Assembly: GCA_902827205.1 (NCBI GenBank)
Contig: LR792634.1
Location: forward strand, 682,001-746,000
Origin: Methanocaldococcus lauensis
GTDB taxonomy: Archaea > AGJL01 > Methanococci > Methanococcales > Methanocaldococcaceae
DNA length: 64,000 bases
Direction of reading: 5' to 3'
The notes under the pieces are model-generated. The model ran no database searches. It had not been told where the DNA came from and worked only from the letters and a program-made list of their open reading frames with translations. A program made the position numbers and the translations under genes. This document shows positions 45,333 to 55,615 of this stretch, piece by piece (position 1 is the first letter of the stretch; each line of letters begins with the position of its first letter).

Positions 45333-48300
45333 TTATCCTTTAATAACCCCTAATGGCTTCATTCTTGCTACTTTTAAAGATATTCCTGCTATATGGCATG
45401 TATCAGCGACTAAGTCTATGTTTTTATATGCGTCTGGAGCTTCCTCAGCCAATACTGCCTTTGAATCACTCAATGCGATAATTCCCATTTCAGCTAATTT
45501 TCTTTGAATTTCTTTACCCTTCCATAGCTTTAAAGCTTTAGCTCTACTTAACTTTCTACCTGCACCATGAGCGGTTGAACCAAAAGTTTCTCTCATTGCT
45601 ATTTCAGTTCCTTTCATTAAATATGATGCAGTTCCCATGTCTCCTGGAAGCAATACTGGTTGTCCAACTACTCTATATTCCTTAGGAATATCTGGATGAT
45701 TTGGAGGAAATGCTCTTGTAGCTCCTTTTCTATGGACAATAACTTTAACCATTCTATTATCAATTTTATGCTTCTCTCTCTTTGCAATGTTGTGGGCCAC
45801 ATCATAAACTATACTCATCTCTAAATCCTCAGCATGTATTTTAAATACTTCCTCAAAGCTCTCTCTAACCCAGTGTGTAATCATCTGTCTATTTGCCCAC
45901 GCATAGTTTGCTCCACAACACATTGCCTTAAAGTAACTCTGCCCCTCCTCTGATTCAAATGGAGCACATGCCAATTGTCTATCTGGCAACTTTATTCCAT
46001 AGTTCTTAGCTGCTTTCTCTAAAATTCTTAAATAATCTGTACAGATTTGATGTCCAAGCCCTCTTGAACCTGTATTACTAACTATGAAATTATTTGCAAT
46101 GAAGTTATGATTTTCGTTATCTATTGTTAAATCATAAACTATATCTATGTTTTCTTTAACTTCTTCTACTGATACTACAATATCCCATAAGGTTAAGTCC
46201 CCGTTAGAATACTTTGATATATATGTGTCAAATTGCTCCATTTTTGTTTTCCTATATTTGTATGAAGTTATTAGTAATTTTTCTTCACTTATTCCAGTTT
46301 CAATTGACTCTTGTTTTATAATTTTTTTCTTGTATATGTAATATTGTAATGATTTCATTAGCATTGACTGTCTCTTCTTATTGTATTCGTATCCAATTTT
46401 ACTTGCAAATTTTATAACATTATCTATTTTTCCACTCAATTTTAGTATTATTTTGTAACTTGTTTTTCCATCTTTTCTTTTGGTGTATGGTTTTACATAG
46501 ATACTTCCTTTAATATCGAATTCTTCTAATAATTGTTTAATTTCTTCCATAAATTTAATTCCATTATCTACTAAATCCTCAACTTTATTTAAAGACACTT
46601 TTAGGTTTTCTACTCTATATGGTTCATTTTTTCTTGGACTAATAATATTCATTTCAGCCCCAAAGTATCCAGCTAAGAACAATCTTTTTATCCATTTTGG
46701 ACTTTGTTTTATCCATTCTGGGACAGAGAATGGAATATCTGATTTTTTACCATATGGAACTCCTAATGCTTTTAGGAATATGGCAAAGGATGGGGCTCTA
46801 ACTACTAATTGATATCCTTCTTCCTCAAAATTATGCTTTATTAGGTCTCCATTACTATTAATGTGAGTTATTTCTGATTTATGTTTCTTTAATTTTACTA
46901 ATGTTGATGAAAAGCCCAACTCTTCCAAATCAGATTTTATTTCATTTAATACATCTAAATTATCAATAAATTTAACTGTTGGTCTTTTTCCACCTACCCA
47001 TGCATCACCAATGGCATATCCTACCAATCTTGCAATAATTCCTATCTTTTCATGGTTTAATTTTAGAGGTAGTAATCCTTTTTTCTTTAGATTTTTAATC
47101 ATTCTTGGAGTTCCCCCTGCTTTAATGATATCTCCATCATCTACTATTGTAATATCGTCTGGTTTTTCATATTCAACACCTTCATAAGGATATATTAAAA
47201 CCAAATCATTTATTTTTAAATCTTTACATTGTTTCCATCCTGAGGGCGTCCATATTGGATGGTCTTCTGTGCAAATAAGTTCTTTTCCAGTGAAAGTTTT
47301 TATTTTATATATTTTCTTATTATTTTTGAATTTCCAAAACTTTTTAATTTTTGCTGGAATTAATGTTTTATTTTCTTTGTCATAGATTAGAAGTTTAACT
47401 TTATCATAACAGTTTTCTAAATCTTTAATTTTTACATAATATCCATATTCAGTCATTATTTTTGCATCTTCCGGTAGGCAATGCACCATAACAACGACTT
47501 GATTTTCCTCAATTCCATAAATTTCAGCAGCTTCTTCATCAAATACTCCCTCAACATACTGAACTTCTAAGAAATGATTTCCACTTCCTAAACTACCTAA
47601 CTGAACTCTACCTCTCTCTTTTGCTTTATCTGATACATAAGAAGAATCAGCCTCTTCCATACATCCATTTTCTTCAATAAACTCTAAATCATCTTTCCAA
47701 CCATAACCTTCTCTAACAGCCCATCTAACTCCCTCTTCTAAAACTTCGTCCATCACACTCTTACTGAACTTTATAATTCCTTTACTACCTAAACCAGAAG
47801 GAACATTTTTAAATAATGTTCTTATAAGCTCTTTTATTTTTGGTTCTACTTCATCTTTTGTTAAATTGGTTCTTATTAATCTAACTCCACAGTTATGGAC
47901 AACTATATTGTTTGCTATAAAGTTGTGTTCCTTACTTACTATTCCAACATCATATAATTTTGAATCATAAGAAATCTCTTCAATTTTTATTATTTTATCT
48001 ATTACAAACCCTCCTTTTACTCCATATTTTTTAATAAATTCTTCAAACTTTGGGAATTTTGTTGAAACCCTTACATCATCTAACTTTCCATATATTGCTC
48101 TTTCAATTAACCTTCTGTTTATAAACTTATTTCTGAATTCATCCATCTTTAAAATTTCTGAAATAGATAACCCCTTGTTATATAGTTCTTTTGCTTTTTC
48201 AACACATTTCTTCCTTATCTCTTTTATAGCATCTTTTCTCTTTAAGTATTCATAAGATAATAATCCAATAACTTTCTTCTCTTCTGAATAATCATAGTTT

Positions 48301-51104
48301 ATTTTTCCTAAGAAGTTTCTTATACTCTCTTCTTCAACAATTGCTAATCTATATGAAACTCTTCCATCTAATGATTTTATCTCATAAATCACACTTTCAA
48401 TTTCAAATTCTTTTAACATATTTCTTATTTCATTTAAAAACTCTAAAATGTTATCTTTTACCTCTGACATTGTTAGGTTTATTGGCAATGGTGTGTAGTT
48501 TTTAAACACTACTCTACTCCCATCTGCTCCAAACAAACCAGACAAGAAATTTCTCTTTACCCATTTTGGTGCCTTCTTTATCCACTCTGGAACATTATAT
48601 TTTTGTTCTGTCTTTTTACCAATTGGCATTCCTAATTTATGCATAAACAACGCAAATGCCTTTGAAGTTATTTTTATATAGTTGTCTTCACATAAACTTG
48701 TATATTCATCTCCATAAGCATTTTTTATCTCAATTTCTCTCTTCCTTGAATATATTTTTGAGGATTTTATTCCCAATTTCTTTAAATCTTCTTTAATCTT
48801 AATAAGTGTCTCTCTCTTTCCATAGAATTCTAAATATAATTTACCTCTTTCTTTAACTATACTTCCATCTCCATAAGCAAAGCCCAACAACCTTGCAATA
48901 ATTCCAATATTTTTATTGTTCATTTTAAATGGTAACAAATCCCTATCCTTTAGATATTTAATTATTTGTTTATCACAATCTGCAAAATCTTTTTCATCTA
49001 ATATTACTTCATCTGATGGTTCTTCATATTCAACGCCTTCAAATGGATAAACTATTATATCATCTCCTTCTTTTAGCATACCCATTGGAACATAGCCATT
49101 TAATGTTAAAACTGGATGGTCTTTACTACCCTCTAATATTCTTCCAGATTCTGTTTTTATTCTTATTATTTTTTCTTCTGCATTCCTTTCAGAAACAAAT
49201 AATATATTAGAAGATTTTTCTTTTCCTTCCTCTGTGTTATAAATCTTAACATACAAATCTAATTTTTCTTTTAGTTTTTCCAATTTTATGAAATATCCGT
49301 CTTCTGTTAATATTTTTGCATCTTGAGTAAGGCAATTTATATCAAAACCAACTCCTCCAGGGCTTATAATTCCCTCTCTCTGGTCAAAAGCCGCTACGCC
49401 TCCAATACAATTTGAAACTAAGAAGTTATCTGCTATAAAGTTGTGGTCTTTGTGATTTATAGTAAAGTCATAAACTTCATCTATGTCATTAACTTCCTCT
49501 ATACTTTCAATCTCATCCCAAATTAGTCCATCTCCAACCTTTTTTTCTTTAATAAATTCTTCAAATCTTGGGAATTTTGAGGAAATTCTTATATCATTAA
49601 TATCTTTTCCATTTTTCAATTTATTCCAAACATCTTTGACAAATCTTTCATCAGATTTATCTAAATTTAATAGTTTTATAATTTCTGAAGGTTTTTTTCC
49701 TTTTTCAAATAACTCTTTTACTTTTTCTACGAGTTCTTTTTTTCTATTTATTTCTCTTTCTCTATACTTTATATATGCCACTGCATAACATCCGAGTTCT
49801 TGTATCTCTCTATTGTATTCATAGCCAATCTTAGACCATAGATTTATTAAGTTCTTAGAAGTTCCATTTATTGTTAAAACATATCTAACTGTCTCTACAC
49901 CATCTTTTCTTTTGTGTGTTGAATTTCTCTTTTTAATTGTTGCTTCAATACCAAATTCACTTAACAATTTGACAATATTTCCTAAGAATTTTAAAGCATC
50001 TTCTTTAATCTTTACATCTTTAGCCATTTCTAATGTTGGAGATGTAAATAATGCCTTTCTATCTTTTCTTGGATATGGTTTTCTCAACTCTGCTCCAAAG
50101 AATGACGCTAAGAACAACCTCTTCTGCCATAATTTACATTTGAATATCCATTCTGGGAAGTCATATTCTTTTAATGTCTTATTTCCTATTGGAACCCCTA
50201 AAGTATAGAGATAAACTAATAAACTTGAGGAATTTACCATAAAGAAGTAGCAATTATTCTTTTCATAAACTTTTGAAGGAGTGTATCCTAATTTTATAAT
50301 GTCTTTTCTAATATCCTCTAAGTCATTTGGATTTTTTGAAGAGAATTGAATTATTCCATCTTTTCTTTTTCCTATGAAGTTCATAGAGCCATCTCCAAAG
50401 ATATAGCCTATAATTTTCAATAAGTAAGGCAATTTTTTATGATTATAAGTTAATGGAATTAAATCGTTTTCTTTCAATTTCCTTAAAATTATTTCTTTAC
50501 TCTTTTCACTTAACTTTAAGTCATTCATACATTCAATTATATCATTCTCATCAATAATTATTTCATCTGAAGGTTCTTCATATTCAATTCCTTCAAATGG
50601 ATAAATTCCTATAGAATCACCAATCTTTAAGTTTTTGAGTTCTATCATTCCATAAGGAGTATAGAAAGGATGGTCTTCTGTGGCTATTGTTTCATATCCT
50701 AATTTAGTTTTAACTCTATAAACTTTACAATAAGGTTTTAATTTGAAGAACTTTTCAACATCTGTATTTTCCATTTTTTTGTCTTCTGTATTGAAAACCT
50801 TAACTTTTTCATCTTTTAAGTTTTCATAATCTTTTATTTTATAGTAGAAACCATGTTCAGTTAATACTTTTGCATTTGGATGAAGACAGAATCCATATCC
50901 ATAATGCACATCTGGCATGGCTATAGAATGCTTATAAATTCCAGGTAGGCATGCAACATTGGCTACTTGCTCTAAAACCTCTGGCTCTAACTCATCTAAA
51001 AGAATCTCATTTAAATATATTCTTCCAGAAACTCTCATACATTCTTTATAACCTTTAGGTAATTCCCAAACTACATCAGAAACTCTCTTTAAAATATCTT
51101 TCAT
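45333..51104 (-). CDS. rtcB: RNA-splicing ligase RtcB with three inteins
   Basis: Joins 2',3'-cyclic phosphate and 5'-OH RNA ends (tRNA exon ligation) with GTP and Mn2+. The 1923-residue precursor contains 480 residues of RtcB in four exteins: 1-72, 566-590, 1072-1208 and 1678-1923. Active-site motifs are GGVGFDIN+CGVR (Cys metal ligand), [13 protein letters not shown] (His), VVVMVH+TGSRG (His), [11 protein letters not shown] (His) and [12 protein letters not shown] (guanylylated His). Inteins interrupt the first and third of these and YGYGF+CIGG. After splicing no residue is missing. ATG 51104 has GGGTGAAAATT upstream. Monocistronic between the transketolase genes and apcT. Confidence 0.96.
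46074..47480 (-). mobile_element. RtcB intein 3 (469 aa, LAGLIDADG type)
   Basis: Residues 1209-1677. Block [15 protein letters not shown], block [12 protein letters not shown], block [20 protein letters not shown] ending IVSN, then +1 Thr. Endonuclease motifs [15 protein letters not shown] and [14 protein letters not shown] are recognisable, with Glu in the second active position. It is inserted straight after the metal-binding His of VVVMVH, before TGSRGLGHQ. The C-terminal DNA-binding part differs from inteins 1 and 2. Confidence 0.95.
47892..49334 (-). mobile_element. RtcB intein 2 (481 aa, LAGLIDADG type)
   Basis: Residues 591-1071. Block [15 protein letters not shown], block B with [10 protein letters not shown] (Ser in place of the usual Thr), C-terminus [21 protein letters not shown] and +1 Cys. 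Endonuclease motifs [15 protein letters not shown] and [15 protein letters not shown] are both canonical, making this the most likely active homing enzyme of the three. The +1 Cys is the conserved metal-binding Cys of the RtcB GFDINCGVR motif. The late [13 protein letters not shown] stretch matches intein 1 closely. Confidence 0.95.
49410..50888 (-). mobile_element. RtcB intein 1 (493 aa, LAGLIDADG type)
   Basis: Residues 73-565 of the precursor. Block A begins [14 protein letters not shown], block B has [11 protein letters not shown], and block F/G has [18 protein letters not shown] ending LVSN, then +1 Cys. The homing endonuclease domain has [14 protein letters not shown] (motif C, about residue 165 of the intein) and [14 protein letters not shown] (motif E, Glu in place of Asp). 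It sits between YGYGF and CIGGVAAFD of RtcB. All splicing residues are present, so it should splice; endonuclease activity is less certain. Confidence 0.95.
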
Positions 51105-51140
51105 AATTTTCACCCATAATAATTTTAAATTCTAATTTTA

Positions 51141-51314: not shown

Positions 51315-52595
51315 ATGAAAAATAAAAAACTTTCCTTATATGAAGCTGTTTCTATGGGCATTGGTGTAATGATAGGAGCAAGTATTTTCTCCATATTTGG
51401 GACAGGTATTAAAATAGCTGGAAATTTGCTACCTGAAGCTTTTGTATTGGCAGGAATCTATGCTTTTTTAGTAGCTTATTCATATATTAAGTTAAGCAGA
51501 GTTATTGTTTCTGATGCTGGACCTATAGCTTATATTCACAAAGCCTTTGGAGATAGTATAATTACTGGGGTTTTAGCTATTTTGATGTGGTTGAGTTACG
51601 TTATCTCTATAGCTTTATTTGCTAAGGGATTTGCAGGATACTTTTTACCTCTGGTTAATATAGGTATAACTCCATTAACTACTGGTTTAGTTGAATTAAT
51701 AATAATAGCGTTCTTTGTGGTATTGAACTTTTTTGGTAGTAAAGCTGTTGGAAAAGCTGAGTTTCTTATTGTTTCAATTAAAGTTTCCATACTCTTATTA
51801 TTTATATTATCTGGATTTTTAGTTTTAAATCCTTCTTATTTATACCCTCCTAACTCCACAATATTTGGTTTATTTTCAGCATCTGCTATATTTTTCTTAT
51901 CCTATATGGGTTTTGGTGTAATAACTAACGCATCTGAACATATTGAAAATCCAAAGAAAAATGTTCCTTTAGCAATACTACTTAGTATTATTATTGTGAT
52001 GTTTATATATGTTGGAGTTTCTGTAGTAGCTTTAGGTTCTTTACCAATTGATGAATTAATAAAATATAGTGAAAATGCTTTGGCAGTGGCAGCTAAACCT
52101 GTTTTGGGGAATTTAGGATTTTTATTAATATCTATTGGGGCGTTATTTTCTATATCCTCAGCAATGAATGCCACAATTTATGGTGGGGCAAATATTGCCT
52201 ATGCTTTAGCAAAAGAAGGGGAGTTGCCAGAATTTTTTGAAAGAAAAGTTTGGTTTGGATCCTCTGAAGGGTTGTATATAACCGCTATCTTAGGTTATCT
52301 ATTTGCATTACTTTTTAATATGGAGGGAGTAGCTTCAATAACAAGTGCTGTCTTTATAATGATATATTTGTTTGTAATCTTATCCCATTATAAACTTATA
52401 AACGAAGTTGGAGGAAAAAAATGGATTCTTAAATTTAATTTTTCTATAATATTTATTGTTTTTTTAATCCTTTTATATTATCAATGGTGTAACAATAAAC
52501 TGGCTTTCTATGGAATCATTATAACATTTTTATTAGCATTTTTATTTGAGTGTTTCTATAGAAAAAGAAGAACATTTAGCTTAAAACTTAATTAA
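51315..52595 (+). CDS. ApcT-like amino acid/proton symporter (APC family)
   Basis: A 426-residue permease with twelve hydrophobic helices. It starts KLSLYEAVSMGIGVMIGASIFSIFGTG (helix 1 with the GxGIGAxIF-like unwound region) and is highly similar along its length, as I recall it, to M. jannaschii ApcT (MJ0609), a broad-specificity amino acid transporter: SYVISIALFAKGFAGYF, SYMGFGVITNASEHIENPKKNVP, SAMNATIYGGANIAYALAKEGELPEFFER. AGGGGGTAGT precedes the ATG. In M. jannaschii it lies away from rtcB, so its place here may be derived. Confidence 0.88.
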   Translation: MKNKKLSLYEAVSMGIGVMIGASIFSIFGTGIKIAGNLLPEAFVLAGIYAFLVAYSYIKLSRVIVSDAGPIAYIHKAFGDSIITGVLAILMWLSYVISIALFAKGFAGYFLPLVNIGITPLTTGLVELIIIAFFVVLNFFGSKAVGKAEFLIVSIKVSILLLFILSGFLVLNPSYLYPPNSTIFGLFSASAIFFLSYMGFGVITNASEHIENPKKNVPLAILLSIIIVMFIYVGVSVVALGSLPIDELIKYSENALAVAAKPVLGNLGFLLISIGALFSISSAMNATIYGGANIAYALAKEGELPEFFERKVWFGSSEGLYITAILGYLFALLFNMEGVASITSAVFIMIYLFVILSHYKLINEVGGKKWILKFNFSIIFIVFLILLYYQWCNNKLAFYGIIITFLLAFLFECFYRKRRTFSLKLN

Positions 52596-52687
52596 AGCAT
52601 TTAAAGATAATTTATTTAAAATCCAAAATCTTTCTTAATAAATTCTTTATTTAATATAAATTTAAAAGTTAGAAAGTTTTAAATACT
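52596..52687. other. Non-coding gap after apcT
   Basis: AT-rich bases between the permease stop and the aminotransferase remnant. No ORF, hairpin or repeat was seen here; the rest of the gap up to the tnpB stop codon at 52933 is the remnant and the insertion element's right end. Confidence 0.6.
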
Positions 52688-52750
52688 TTATCTCTCATCT
52701 AAAAATTCTTTGATCCTTTCTAAACCCTCTTTAATGTTTTCATAAGAGTT
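52688..52750 (-). pseudogene. C-terminal remnant of an aminotransferase gene
   Basis: Twenty codons and a stop on the minus strand read NSYENIKEGLERIKEFLDER. They match the end of the intact aminotransferase gene at 54326 (NSYEKIKEGMERIKEFIE) in 15 of 18 shared positions, but many synonymous bases differ. The remnant starts exactly where the insertion element's right end stops being recognisable. It is either the displaced original tail or a tail brought in by transfer. Confidence 0.75.
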
Positions 52751-52960
52751 GGGGTTCTCCCAACGTGGTCATTTATAGACAAAAATAGACATTTAGGAAA
52801 TTTTAATTAAATGCTTTCCGTTATAATCGACTTTATAGACCACATTGGGATTGGGCGTCATCAGTTTCCTAATGGAAACCTCTGCCCCTGTCATGGACAT
52901 AAAACCCTTATGGTTTTTAAGTTCTCGTCGCTTCACTCCGAGATAACCCTCAAGCCACCC
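52751..52960 (-). ncRNA. Probable omega/reRNA region of the TnpB element
   Basis: In IS605-type elements the TnpB guide RNA covers the 3' end of tnpB and the right end, with the guide taken from flanking DNA. Here the 170 bases after the tnpB stop hold stable potential pairings (52759-52770 with 52838-52849; 52796-52800 with 52815-52819). The guide would be the aminotransferase remnant next to it. Position follows from the family; no direct evidence of the transcript. Confidence 0.45.
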
Positions 52961-54084
52961 ATAATCTCTTTAACTTTTCCTAAACCTCTTTTAAAGATGT
53001 TAAAGCAACCAACTAACTGTCGATTAAAAGAGTTTTCACAATTAAAGCAATAAACAACCTGTCCTTCTTGGGACTCCATTTTATTCCCGCATATAGGACA
53101 GGTTGTCGATGTATAGGCGGGATTAACTAAAATCGTTATCGCTTTATAACTAATTTTTTGTATTATGCTATTCCAATTACTCCTATCTAACTTTCGATTG
53201 AACGTTTTATTTTTATACATCTTTCTTTTATTTAAGTTCTCAAAAATAAAAATTGCGTTAGGAAATAATCGAGATAATTGAGTAGTTAATTTATGTAAAA
53301 AGTCATAAACTCTATTTTTTCTTCTTTCTAACAATCTTTTTATTTTTCTTAAAGCTCTCAAAGGGCATTTTTTAAGTAATGATTTAAGTAAATCGATTTT
53401 TTTATCGTAAATTTCTTTAATTCTGTGTAATTCGGATAAATCTATTCTTATCCAACCTTCCATAGGGAGGTATAAATCGAGTGACTTTAAGTTGCTATCT
53501 ACTCCAACGATTATCTCCTTGTCTGAATAAGTTAAATTATCTTTGAATGTTAAGAATGCCTCATTTTCTTTTAAAATAATCTCTCCTATTGGTAAATCCT
53601 TAACCTTATCGAAAAACCATTCATTTTTAATGTTTAAAACTAAATATTCTTTTCTTGGTTTTATCGTTATTCTTATCTCTCCTTTATCTTTATCGTATTT
53701 TATTAATGTTGTTTTAACTCTAACAAATAATCTTTTAACTATCGGTTTTGTTTTTTTCCTATAACCATTTTTATAATTCGAAGCCCAACTATTTAGGATA
53801 GAATAGGCAGTTTTAATAATTCCATCTATATAATGAGAAGCATAACTCCAATTCTTTAGCAGTTTGTTTCTTAAATTTCTTTTGAATTCATTAGATTTTT
53901 GTAGTTTTGGTTTGTCTTTTTTAGTCCATTCGATATTATTCCAAATTATATCTATGCATTCGTTTAATTTATCTCTACATTCGGTTAAAAATGTTTTAAT
54001 TTGATAGTTGTGGCTAACCTTGTAAGATAAGACGATTTGATAATCCAATTCTTTGTCATTTTTTGATTTTATTTCGTTCGGCAT
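52933..54084 (-). CDS. tnpB: TnpB-family RNA-guided endonuclease with degenerate RuvC-III
   Basis: A 383-residue TnpB. The N-terminal domain is basic and helical (KNDKELDYQIVLSYKVSH); RuvC-I is EIIVGVDSNLKSLDL with its Asp, RuvC-II is AIFIFENLNKRKM with its Glu, and the zinc finger is TCPICGNKM...YCFNC. The third RuvC motif, usually DRDxNAAxNI, reads NRQLVGCFNI: both aspartates are replaced. It may be nuclease-dead or use a rearranged active site. Length is normal. Sequence is full length with no frameshift, so it does not look like a decaying gene. Confidence 0.88.
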   Translation of the reverse strand: MPNEIKSKNDKELDYQIVLSYKVSHNYQIKTFLTECRDKLNECIDIIWNNIEWTKKDKPKLQKSNEFKRNLRNKLLKNWSYASHYIDGIIKTAYSILNSWASNYKNGYRKKTKPIVKRLFVRVKTTLIKYDKDKGEIRITIKPRKEYLVLNIKNEWFFDKVKDLPIGEIILKENEAFLTFKDNLTYSDKEIIVGVDSNLKSLDLYLPMEGWIRIDLSELHRIKEIYDKKIDLLKSLLKKCPLRALRKIKRLLERRKNRVYDFLHKLTTQLSRLFPNAIFIFENLNKRKMYKNKTFNRKLDRSNWNSIIQKISYKAITILVNPAYTSTTCPICGNKMESQEGQVVYCFNCENSFNRQLVGCFNIFKRGLGKVKEIMGGLRVISE

Positions 54085-54176
54085 AATAATCTTTTGGAAT
54101 TTGTTTTTAGATTATTGTATTTCTATATATTTTAACATATATTTAAAAATTTCTCTGAATATTTGTCTATAAATGT

Positions 54177-54317
54177 CTATGGTTGTCTATGAATAATTAA
54201 ATAGTTCCAAACGGCAAGATTTATTAATTGGGAAGCATATTTTGGAAATTCTGGATTAGGGAGGGAAAGTAAATCTCTAACTTCATCATATTTTAATTTA
54301 GTTTTCCCATCTTGCAT
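54177..54317 (-). pseudogene. N-terminal remnant resembling an MjaI-type restriction endonuclease
   Basis: A 46-codon ORF: MQDGKTKLKYDEVRDLLSLP, then NPEFPKYASQLINLA, followed by unrelated residues that run into the insertion element and a stop. The first 35 residues resemble, from memory, the start of the MjaI family (recognises CTAG), with the LPNPEFPKY stretch. AGGTGACATT is placed correctly before the ATG, nine bases after the aminotransferase stop, so it was once an expressed operon gene. The insertion element seems to have cut it off. The family match is tentative. Confidence 0.5.
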
Positions 54318-54325
54318 AATGTCAC

Positions 54326-55432
54326 CTACTCAATAAATTCCTTTATTCTCTCCATCCCTTCTTTTATTTTTTCATATGAATTTGCGTAAGAAATTCTAAC
54401 ACAATTCTTTCCTTTACTTCCAAAACCTATTCCAGGAGTTAAAGCGACATATTTCTCTTTCAATAATTTGTAAGCAAATTCTCTCCCATCCTCTCCAATG
54501 TTTGGAAAGACATAATAGGCAGCAATTGGATTATTAACTTTCCATCCAAAATAGTTAACATATTTTAAAACCAATTTTCTCCTTCTATTAAATTCTTTTA
54601 TCATATTATTTATTTCTTTTTCAGTTTCTTTTTCAAATGCCTTTAACGCGGCATATTGAGACATTGTTGGAGCTGAGATGAATAAATTTTGCTGTAATTT
54701 TAACACTGCTTCAATAATTTTCTCATTTGATATAACATAACCAATTCTCCATCCAGTCATCGCATAAAGCTTAGAGAATCCATTAACCAATATTGTTTTT
54801 TCTAAATTTTCATCAAACTCAATTGCTGAATAGCATTTTCCTTCATAAACTAAACCGTTGTAGATTTCATCTGAGATAATGTAAGGAATATATTCATAAG
54901 CAAATTCATAAATCTCTTTATCTACAACCTCTCCTAATGGATTGGATGGGGAATTTATGATTATTGCCTTAGTTTTATTAGATATTGCCTTTTCTAAACT
55001 TTCAACTGTAAAATCACAAAATACTGGTTTTCCCCCTAAAAACTTAATAAAATTTTTATAACATGGATATGAGGGATTTTGAATTAAAACTTCATCTCCC
55101 TCATCAATTATTGAAGATAGAGCAAAAAATAAACCTAAAGAACTACCTCCAGTAATGATTATGTTATCTGGATTTATATCTGCTCTATATTTACCTTTAT
55201 ATAAATTTCTAATCTTCTCCCTCAACTCCAAAATCCCTCTACTGTCTGTATAATGAGTAAATCCTTCTTTTAAAGCTTTAATCCCCTCTTCAACTATTGA
55301 CTTTGGAGTATTAAAATCTGGCTCCCCAATCTCTAAATGTATAACTTTTTTTTCACTTTCAAGTTTTTGAGCTAAAGCCAAAATATCCATAACTTCAAAT
55401 GATTCAAAATTTAAAAGTCTTTTTGATAACAT
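54326..55432 (-). CDS. Class I/II PLP-dependent aminotransferase (aspartate aminotransferase-like)
   Basis: A 368-residue fold-type I aminotransferase (AspC/AlaT group). Motifs: IHLEIGEPDFNTP, HYTDSRGILELREKI, IITGGSSLGLFFALSS, IIINSPSNPLGEVVDKE, PYIISDEIYNGLVYEG, NGFSKLYAMTGWRIGYVIS (PLP lysine in SKLYA) and GKNCVRISYANSY. ATG 55432 with GGTGGTGCTT upstream. Its last 18 codons have a diverged double at 52688-52750 beyond the insertion element. Substrate not certain; aspartate is likely by family. Confidence 0.9.
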   Translation of the reverse strand: MLSKRLLNFESFEVMDILALAQKLESEKKVIHLEIGEPDFNTPKSIVEEGIKALKEGFTHYTDSRGILELREKIRNLYKGKYRADINPDNIIITGGSSLGLFFALSSIIDEGDEVLIQNPSYPCYKNFIKFLGGKPVFCDFTVESLEKAISNKTKAIIINSPSNPLGEVVDKEIYEFAYEYIPYIISDEIYNGLVYEGKCYSAIEFDENLEKTILVNGFSKLYAMTGWRIGYVISNEKIIEAVLKLQQNLFISAPTMSQYAALKAFEKETEKEINNMIKEFNRRRKLVLKYVNYFGWKVNNPIAAYYVFPNIGEDGREFAYKLLKEKYVALTPGIGFGSKGKNCVRISYANSYEKIKEGMERIKEFIE

Positions 55433-55505
55433 AAGCACCACCATTATAAATGTTAAAGATAAATAGTTATTAATTATTAATACTAAAAATAATGGATAAA
55501 CAACT

Positions 55506-55582
55506 ATAGGACTTTCGCAATATATTTATTTAATTAAGGTAGTTGGATGCAAATAGACGATTTATTCTTGCGAAAGTCCTAT
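55506..55582. repeat. Palindromic repeat, copy 2
   Basis: ATAGGACTTTCGCAA (55506-55520) and TTGCGAAAGTCCTAT (55568-55582) form a perfect 15-bp inverted repeat around 47 AT-rich bases. Same ends as copy 1 at 51141-51206. It lies upstream of both the aminotransferase and the MinD-like gene, which diverge here. No poly-T follows, so it is not a simple terminator. Confidence 0.8.
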
Positions 55583-55615
55583 ACTAAATCAAATATTTTA
55601 CTATGGTGACATAAA

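What the first reader, a model, noticed from the sequence alone, without database searches (positions are those of the whole stretch)
52688..54328. Aminotransferase tail occurs twice, on both sides of an insertion
The last 18-20 codons of the intact gene (54326-55432) have a partner, NSYENIKEGLERIKEF..., at 52688-52750, in the same strand and order, with an insertion element and a restriction-enzyme-like fragment between. The copies differ at many synonymous bases, so this is no recent target duplication. It looks like a mobile block that enters at the 3' end of the gene and restores it with a foreign tail, as integrases and some restriction-modification systems do.
Basis: partly seen in the sequence, partly recalled or inferred. 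Interest (0 to 1): 0.7.

Follow-up and report, generated by a model that had tools for sequence, protein, structure and literature searches.

The report
Archaeal gene wearing a foreign tail
In this Methanocaldococcus genome an aminotransferase gene has lost its own last twenty or so codons to an insertion and ends instead in a tail from a different archaeal family (Methanotorris type), while its original tail lies stranded behind the inserted DNA (a restriction-enzyme stub plus a TnpB transposon): a clear natural gene graft, though of a generally known kind.

Summary
The aminotransferase (54326-55444, minus) is a mosaic: 202 of 221 diagnostic sites in its body are native, but none in its last 21 codons, where 10 of 11 match Methanotorris (Fisher p 2.5e-11). 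The breakpoint is at 54391-54398. The stranded copy at 52688-52750 is the native tail: a same-species genome has the single-copy site with that tail and the same downstream DNA.

Between the tails lie 35 codons of an MjaI-type (CTAG) restriction endonuclease gene and one complete IS607-type TnpB element (52751-54212). The element's right end abuts the native tail at a codon boundary that looks like a normal target (GCC|AAC). Only 9-15 native bases are missing. Best reading: DNA carrying [Methanotorris-type tail, R stub, element] joined into the native gene near its 3' end, replacing the tail and keeping the frame. No integrase is involved. The order of events and the donor locus are not recovered.

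Curiosity: the TnpB guide would be the native tail; the foreign tail mismatches it and lacks the GCC. A cut-and-rescue role is possible but untested; TnpB's RuvC-III aspartate is absent family-wide.

The parts
54398..55444 (-). Native body of the aminotransferase gene (class I/II, PF00155), CDS nt 1-1047
   Evidence: 96.6% identical to G005; 202 of 221 diagnostic body sites native; Pfam
54391..54398 (-). Left breakpoint, native to foreign (between CDS nt 1047 and 1054; shared AGAAT)
   Evidence: Last native-specific site at nt 1047, first Methanotorris-specific site at nt 1054
54326..54391 (-). Foreign, Methanotorris-type 3' end of the aminotransferase (SYANSYEKIKEGMERIKEFIE, stop TAG at 54326-54328)
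   Evidence: 56/63 nt to G034 and 55/63 to G035; best Methanocaldococcus 50/63; 10 of 11 diagnostic sites Methanotorris, 0 native
54213..54317 (-). First 35 codons of an MjaI-type (CTAG) restriction endonuclease gene, truncated by the element
   Evidence: 54213-54337 is 100% identical to G009 and 93% to G005's intact R gene; G005 R = PF09568, E 4.9e-69
52751..54212 (-). Complete IS607-type TnpB element without its own serine transposase; left end GTTTGGAAC.. after TTGCC, right end ..GGGAGAACCCC
   Evidence: Ends defined by comparison with other copies and one empty site; a relative carries an upstream serine recombinase
52933..54084 (-). tnpB, 383 aa, intact; RuvC-III motif FNRQLVGCFNIF lacks the usual Asp, as in all relatives aligned
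   Evidence: Pfam OrfB_IS605 and Cas12f1-like_TNB; PDB match to TnpB; alignment
52751..52888 (-). Predicted omega (right-end) RNA scaffold; its guide would run on from 52750 into the native tail
   Evidence: Consensus fold of 10 relatives: 17 pairs, 6 with compensatory changes
52688..52750 (-). Stranded native 3' end of the aminotransferase, NSYENIKEGLERIKEFLDER*
   Evidence: 51/54 nt to G005 and G010, 41/54 to Methanotorris-type G034
52596..52687 (.). Native downstream flank between the aminotransferase and the amino-acid permease gene
   Evidence: Aligns with the G005 flank with small gaps only

Best explanation
A piece of DNA consisting of the 3' end of a Methanotorris-type aminotransferase gene, the start of an MjaI-type R gene lying directly behind it, and an IS607-type TnpB element sitting in that R gene joined into the native aminotransferase about 20 codons before its stop. 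On the left, native and foreign genes were spliced in register at a short identity (AGAAT), so the frame runs on into the foreign tail and the gene stays whole. On the right, the element's right end is joined to the native gene at a normal IS607-like target, GCC|AAC, leaving the native tail as a dead remnant. Shown: the mosaic, the native identity of the remnant, the element's ends, the 9-15 base gap. Inferred: that the donor had the R gene directly behind its aminotransferase; that the right junction was made by the element (its own insertion into the native gene followed by exchange between two element copies, or a one-ended serine-recombinase exchange at a CC core); and the order of steps.
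For: Mosaic with a sharp breakpoint, Fisher p 2.5e-11. Ser codon TCT, EK, GM and FIE in the tail are shared with both Methanotorris-type genomes, while the Methanocaldococcus genes have AGT/AGC, EN or NK, GL. Native single-copy site in the same species. The left element junction is inside an R gene after TTGCC, where G009 continues uninterrupted; the right junction begins at the codon after an Ala codon that is GCC in 3 of 11 relatives. A relative's copy in another gene sits after GCC with no codon lost or gained. IS607 elements exchange at a GG (CC) core without target duplication (PMC6188088). G009's R gene carries TTTATTGAGTAGGTGACATT just upstream, equal to the end of the foreign aminotransferase and its spacer, a hint that this adjacency existed before.
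Against: No genome among 36 Methanococcales has an R gene directly behind the aminotransferase; in Methanotorris-type G034 the R remnant follows the release-factor gene. The R stub is identical to a Methanocaldococcus gene (G009) and clearly less like G034's, so the assembled block must have passed through a Methanocaldococcus or come from an unsampled donor. The native GCC codon at the right junction is inferred, not seen; G005 has GCA there. The TTTATTGAGTAG match could instead be the microhomology at which tail and R gene were fused.
Confidence: 0.6

Rival explanations
1. A whole MjaI R-M block headed by a Methanotorris-type aminotransferase tail first integrated at the 3' end of the native gene, restoring it. 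A TnpB element then landed in the R gene, and an element-linked deletion removed the rest of R, the methyltransferase and everything up to GCC in the native tail.
For: R-M systems are known to insert with target duplication and to move with insertion sequences (PMC3031569). The own genome has no MjaI methyltransferase. R sequences of the window and G009 are identical over 125 bases, so the R-M circulates in this clade.
Against: The two junctions lie only 9-15 bases apart in native coordinates, which a later deletion would hit only by chance or by using the nearest CC core. No trace of the R 3' end or the methyltransferase remains here.
Confidence: 0.3
2. The remnant is the relic of a second, tandem aminotransferase gene, the rest of which was deleted.
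For: Two tails in the same orientation, as a tandem pair would leave.
Against: No relative has a tandem copy; each has at most one close copy and at most one paralogue of about 46% elsewhere. The remnant's downstream flank is the native one, and the body upstream of the foreign tail is native too.
Confidence: 0.03
3. The tail at 54326 is not foreign but a fast-diverged native tail, and the insertion is an ordinary element insertion after a local duplication.
For: The stretch is short (63 bases).
Against: 14 differences from G005 in 54 bases have a probability of about 5e-10 at 3% divergence; the changes reproduce Methanotorris-specific bases at 10 of 11 sites.
Confidence: 0.02

Closest known systems
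Insertion of restriction-modification systems with long target duplication (Nobusato et al. 2000, as cited in PMC3031569) and IS-linked R-M movement (PMC3031569)
   Same: An R-M gene lies where a host gene end is present twice, and an insertion sequence sits at the junction.
   Different: The second copy is from another family rather than a duplication; only a stub of R remains and no methyltransferase; the element is of the IS607 type.
IS607-family elements with TnpB (serine transposase TnpA plus RNA-guided TnpB; PMC6188088)
   Same: Ends with a CC core, no target duplication, structured right-end RNA, relatives with an upstream serine recombinase.
   Different: This copy lacks tnpA; TnpB lacks the RuvC-III Asp; its two flanks come from two different genes.
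Integrative elements that enter the 3' end of a gene and restore it with their own copy (genomic islands in tRNA and other gene ends; own knowledge)
   Same: Net outcome: gene intact with a newly supplied tail, native tail displaced downstream.
   Different: No integrase, no shared attachment sequence beyond a few bases; the new tail differs at about a quarter of its bases.
MjaI (CTAG) type II R-M system (PF09568 with an N6_N4_Mtase methyltransferase)
   Same: The R stub is 97-100% identical in protein to R genes of this type in G005 and G009.
   Different: Here only a remnant.

Membership tests
IS607-type TnpB element | TnpB (OrfB) gene | tested here: met
   PF01385 and PF07282, PDB TnpB match
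IS607-type TnpB element | Serine transposase TnpA | tested here: not met
   Absent in this copy; present just upstream of tnpB in a relative (G002: PF00239 plus MerR-type HTH), with similar upstream sequence in several others. This copy is a TnpA-less derivative.
IS607-type TnpB element | GG/CC core at ends and target, no target duplication | tested here: met
   13 of 14 left junctions end in CC and all 12 right ends end in CCCC (two decayed copies deviate); one empty-site comparison shows no duplication
IS607-type TnpB element | Structured right-end RNA with the guide outside the element | tested here: inconclusive
   Covarying stems at the right end; the RNA itself and its use as a guide could not be tested
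Active TnpB nuclease | RuvC catalytic D/E/D | tested here: not met
   RuvC-III Asp replaced by Gln in all aligned relatives; clades with rearranged RuvC motifs exist, and one with a RuvC-II rearrangement is active (PMC10278001)
R-M insertion with long target duplication | Intact R-M between two copies of the target | tested here: not met
   Only 35 codons of R; no MjaI methyltransferase in the genome
R-M insertion with long target duplication | Empty site in a relative | tested here: met
   G005
Integrase-borne genomic island | Integrase gene and matching attachment repeats | tested here: not met
   No integrase gene between the tails; tails only 72% identical

The most novel reading that the evidence does not exclude
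The arrangement works as a natural cleave-and-rescue unit: TnpB, guided by an RNA whose guide is the native aminotransferase tail, cuts unoccupied native alleles, while the linked foreign tail keeps the host gene working and escapes the guide (4 mismatches in 20 bases and no GCC before the target). The G010 allele matches the first 20 guide bases exactly, the G005 allele with one mismatch.
Probability: 0.06. Interest if true: 0.85.

Novelty: new variant of a known kind. Interest (0 to 1): 0.45.

Why it matters
It is a base-level record of a gene 3' end being swapped between archaeal families together with the insertion of a transposon, leaving the original end behind as a label. That is direct evidence of gene flow between Methanotorris-type and Methanocaldococcus archaea, and it shows how a transposon insertion in a coding gene can be tolerated. 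It also poses a concrete question: whether recoding of a target by a foreign tail lets a TnpB element sit in a gene whose native alleles it could cut.

Tried and rejected
Tandem-paralogue relic: rejected. Random element-adjacent deletion as the cause of the right junction: disfavoured, because the junction falls on a target-like codon boundary within 15 bases of the left breakpoint. A donor like G013 (81% tail match): replaced by Methanotorris after the order-level search. Search for the donor junction: no exact match to a degenerate 28-mer in genome contigs or viral contigs; the second genome scan, with the aminotransferase, returned only two already known relatives; R in viral contigs, none; the block in phages, none; R in plasmids gave only Methanothermobacter homologues at 53%. 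Rfam found no known RNA in the region.

Full report
Observation. The aminotransferase gene 54326-55444 (minus) is intact (PF00155). At 52688-52750, same strand, stands NSYENIKEGLERIKEFLDER* with its stop. Both stretches are real and the coordinates are right.

Which tail is native. Regions around the gene were fetched from eleven other genomes of the genus. In G005, labelled same species, the gene is single, ends ...NSYENIKEGLERIKEFLDEK*, and is followed by the same flank and the same permease gene as the window remnant. The remnant matches the G005 and G010 tails at 51/54 bases. The remnant is therefore the native tail in its native place.

Which tail is foreign. The intact gene's body is 96.6% identical to G005 but its last 21 codons only 73.0%. 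An order-wide search found two genomes of another family and genus (G034; G035, 1,854,197 bases, the size of Methanotorris igneus by own knowledge, hence 'Methanotorris-type') whose tails read SYANSYEKIKEGMERIKEFIE and SYANSYEKIKEGMERIEEFIE. The window tail is SYANSYEKIKEGMERIKEFIE, 56/63 and 55/63 bases identical to these, against at most 50/63 for any Methanocaldococcus. At sites where the two Methanotorris-type genes agree and differ from G005, the body has 202 native, 14 Methanotorris and 5 other; the tail has 0, 10 and 1 (Fisher p 2.5e-11). The switch lies between CDS nt 1047 and 1054 (window 54398-54391), within a shared AGAAT.

What lies between. Directly after the foreign stop comes GTGACATT and the first 35 codons of a restriction endonuclease gene. 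Window 54337-54213 is 100% identical to G009 and 93% to G005, whose R gene is an MjaI family member (PF09568, E 4.9e-69) next to a convergent methyltransferase. The own genome has no such methyltransferase, and its cofE-phoU locus, where G005 carries the system, is empty. Then follows one complete TnpB element, 52751-54212.

The element. Other copies in this and related genomes define its ends: left, after (N)GCC or similar, RTTTGAAACTG...; right...GGGAGAACCCC or GGGAAGACCCC. In G006 a copy interrupts a gene at GAC GCC | TAT TAT, where eight relatives have an uninterrupted GAY GCN TAY TAY, so it inserts after GCC without duplication. A relative carries a serine recombinase with a MerR-type domain upstream (PF00239), which makes the group IS607-type; IS607 exchanges strands over a GG core without target duplication (PMC6188088). 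The right end folds into stems with compensatory changes at 6 of 17 pairs, as expected for the omega RNA whose guide lies outside the element (PMC10278001). TnpB is intact but has Gln where the RuvC-III Asp is expected, in all eleven proteins aligned.

The junctions. The left end is in the R gene after TTGCC; G009 continues ...TTGCCAATATATATTCC. The right end abuts the native tail at AAC, the codon after an alanine that is GCC in 3 of 11 relatives and GCA or GCT in the others. Both look like ordinary element insertion sites, but in two different genes. In native coordinates the two breakpoints are only 9-15 bases apart. Three histories fit: (a) the element entered the native tail, and exchange with a donor [foreign tail, R, element] rescued the gene; (b) a donor piece joined in one event, by gene homology on the left and by the element's right end on the right; (c) an R-M block with the foreign tail integrated first and the element then deleted most of it. 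I favour (a) or (b) because of the narrow gap. The data do not order the steps.

Hint about the donor. G009's R gene, at another locus, carries TTTATTGAGTAGGTGACATT upstream, equal to the last 12 bases of the foreign gene plus spacer, where G005 differs in a cluster of bases while the neighbouring sequence is nearly identical. This suggests that the R gene once stood behind a Methanotorris-type aminotransferase. It could also be the microhomology of a fusion. No sampled genome shows that adjacency, and the G034 R remnant lies behind a release-factor gene (gene named by eye).

Possible function. Because the guide of a TnpB RNA is read from the right flank, here it would be AACTCTTATGAAAACATTAAAG, the native tail. 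The foreign tail differs at positions 3, 6, 15 and 18 of the first 20 and has GCA rather than GCC before it. The rescued gene would thus be poorly recognised. Such resistance may be incidental, and whether this TnpB cuts at all is unknown. I give selected cut-and-rescue 6%.

Verdict. It is a new variant of known element- and R-M-linked rearrangements.

Noticed in passing
45333-51113 (-): RtcB-like gene of 1926 codons that appears to carry several in-frame inserts typical of inteins; in G002 (L036) the start of the corresponding gene reads through without the first two inserts.
   Followed up: no
51315-52595 (+): An amino-acid permease gene lies between the aminotransferase and rtcB in the window genome and G005; in six other relatives rtcB follows the aminotransferase directly.
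   Followed up: partly
55505-55583: Short element with perfect 16-base inverted ends TATAGGACTTTCGCAA upstream of the aminotransferase; not found in the fetched G005 region; looks like a MITE.
   Followed up: partly
L058 (G009:C17) and L059 (G005:C1): MjaI R-M system between cofE and phoU in G005: intact there, R gene broken in G009, absent in the window genome; a presence, decay and absence series.
   Followed up: partly
52933-54084 (-): All aligned Methanocaldococcus TnpB proteins of this group lack the RuvC-III Asp (RQLVG or RQFVG); whether they are nucleases with a rearranged site or inactive is open.
   Followed up: partly
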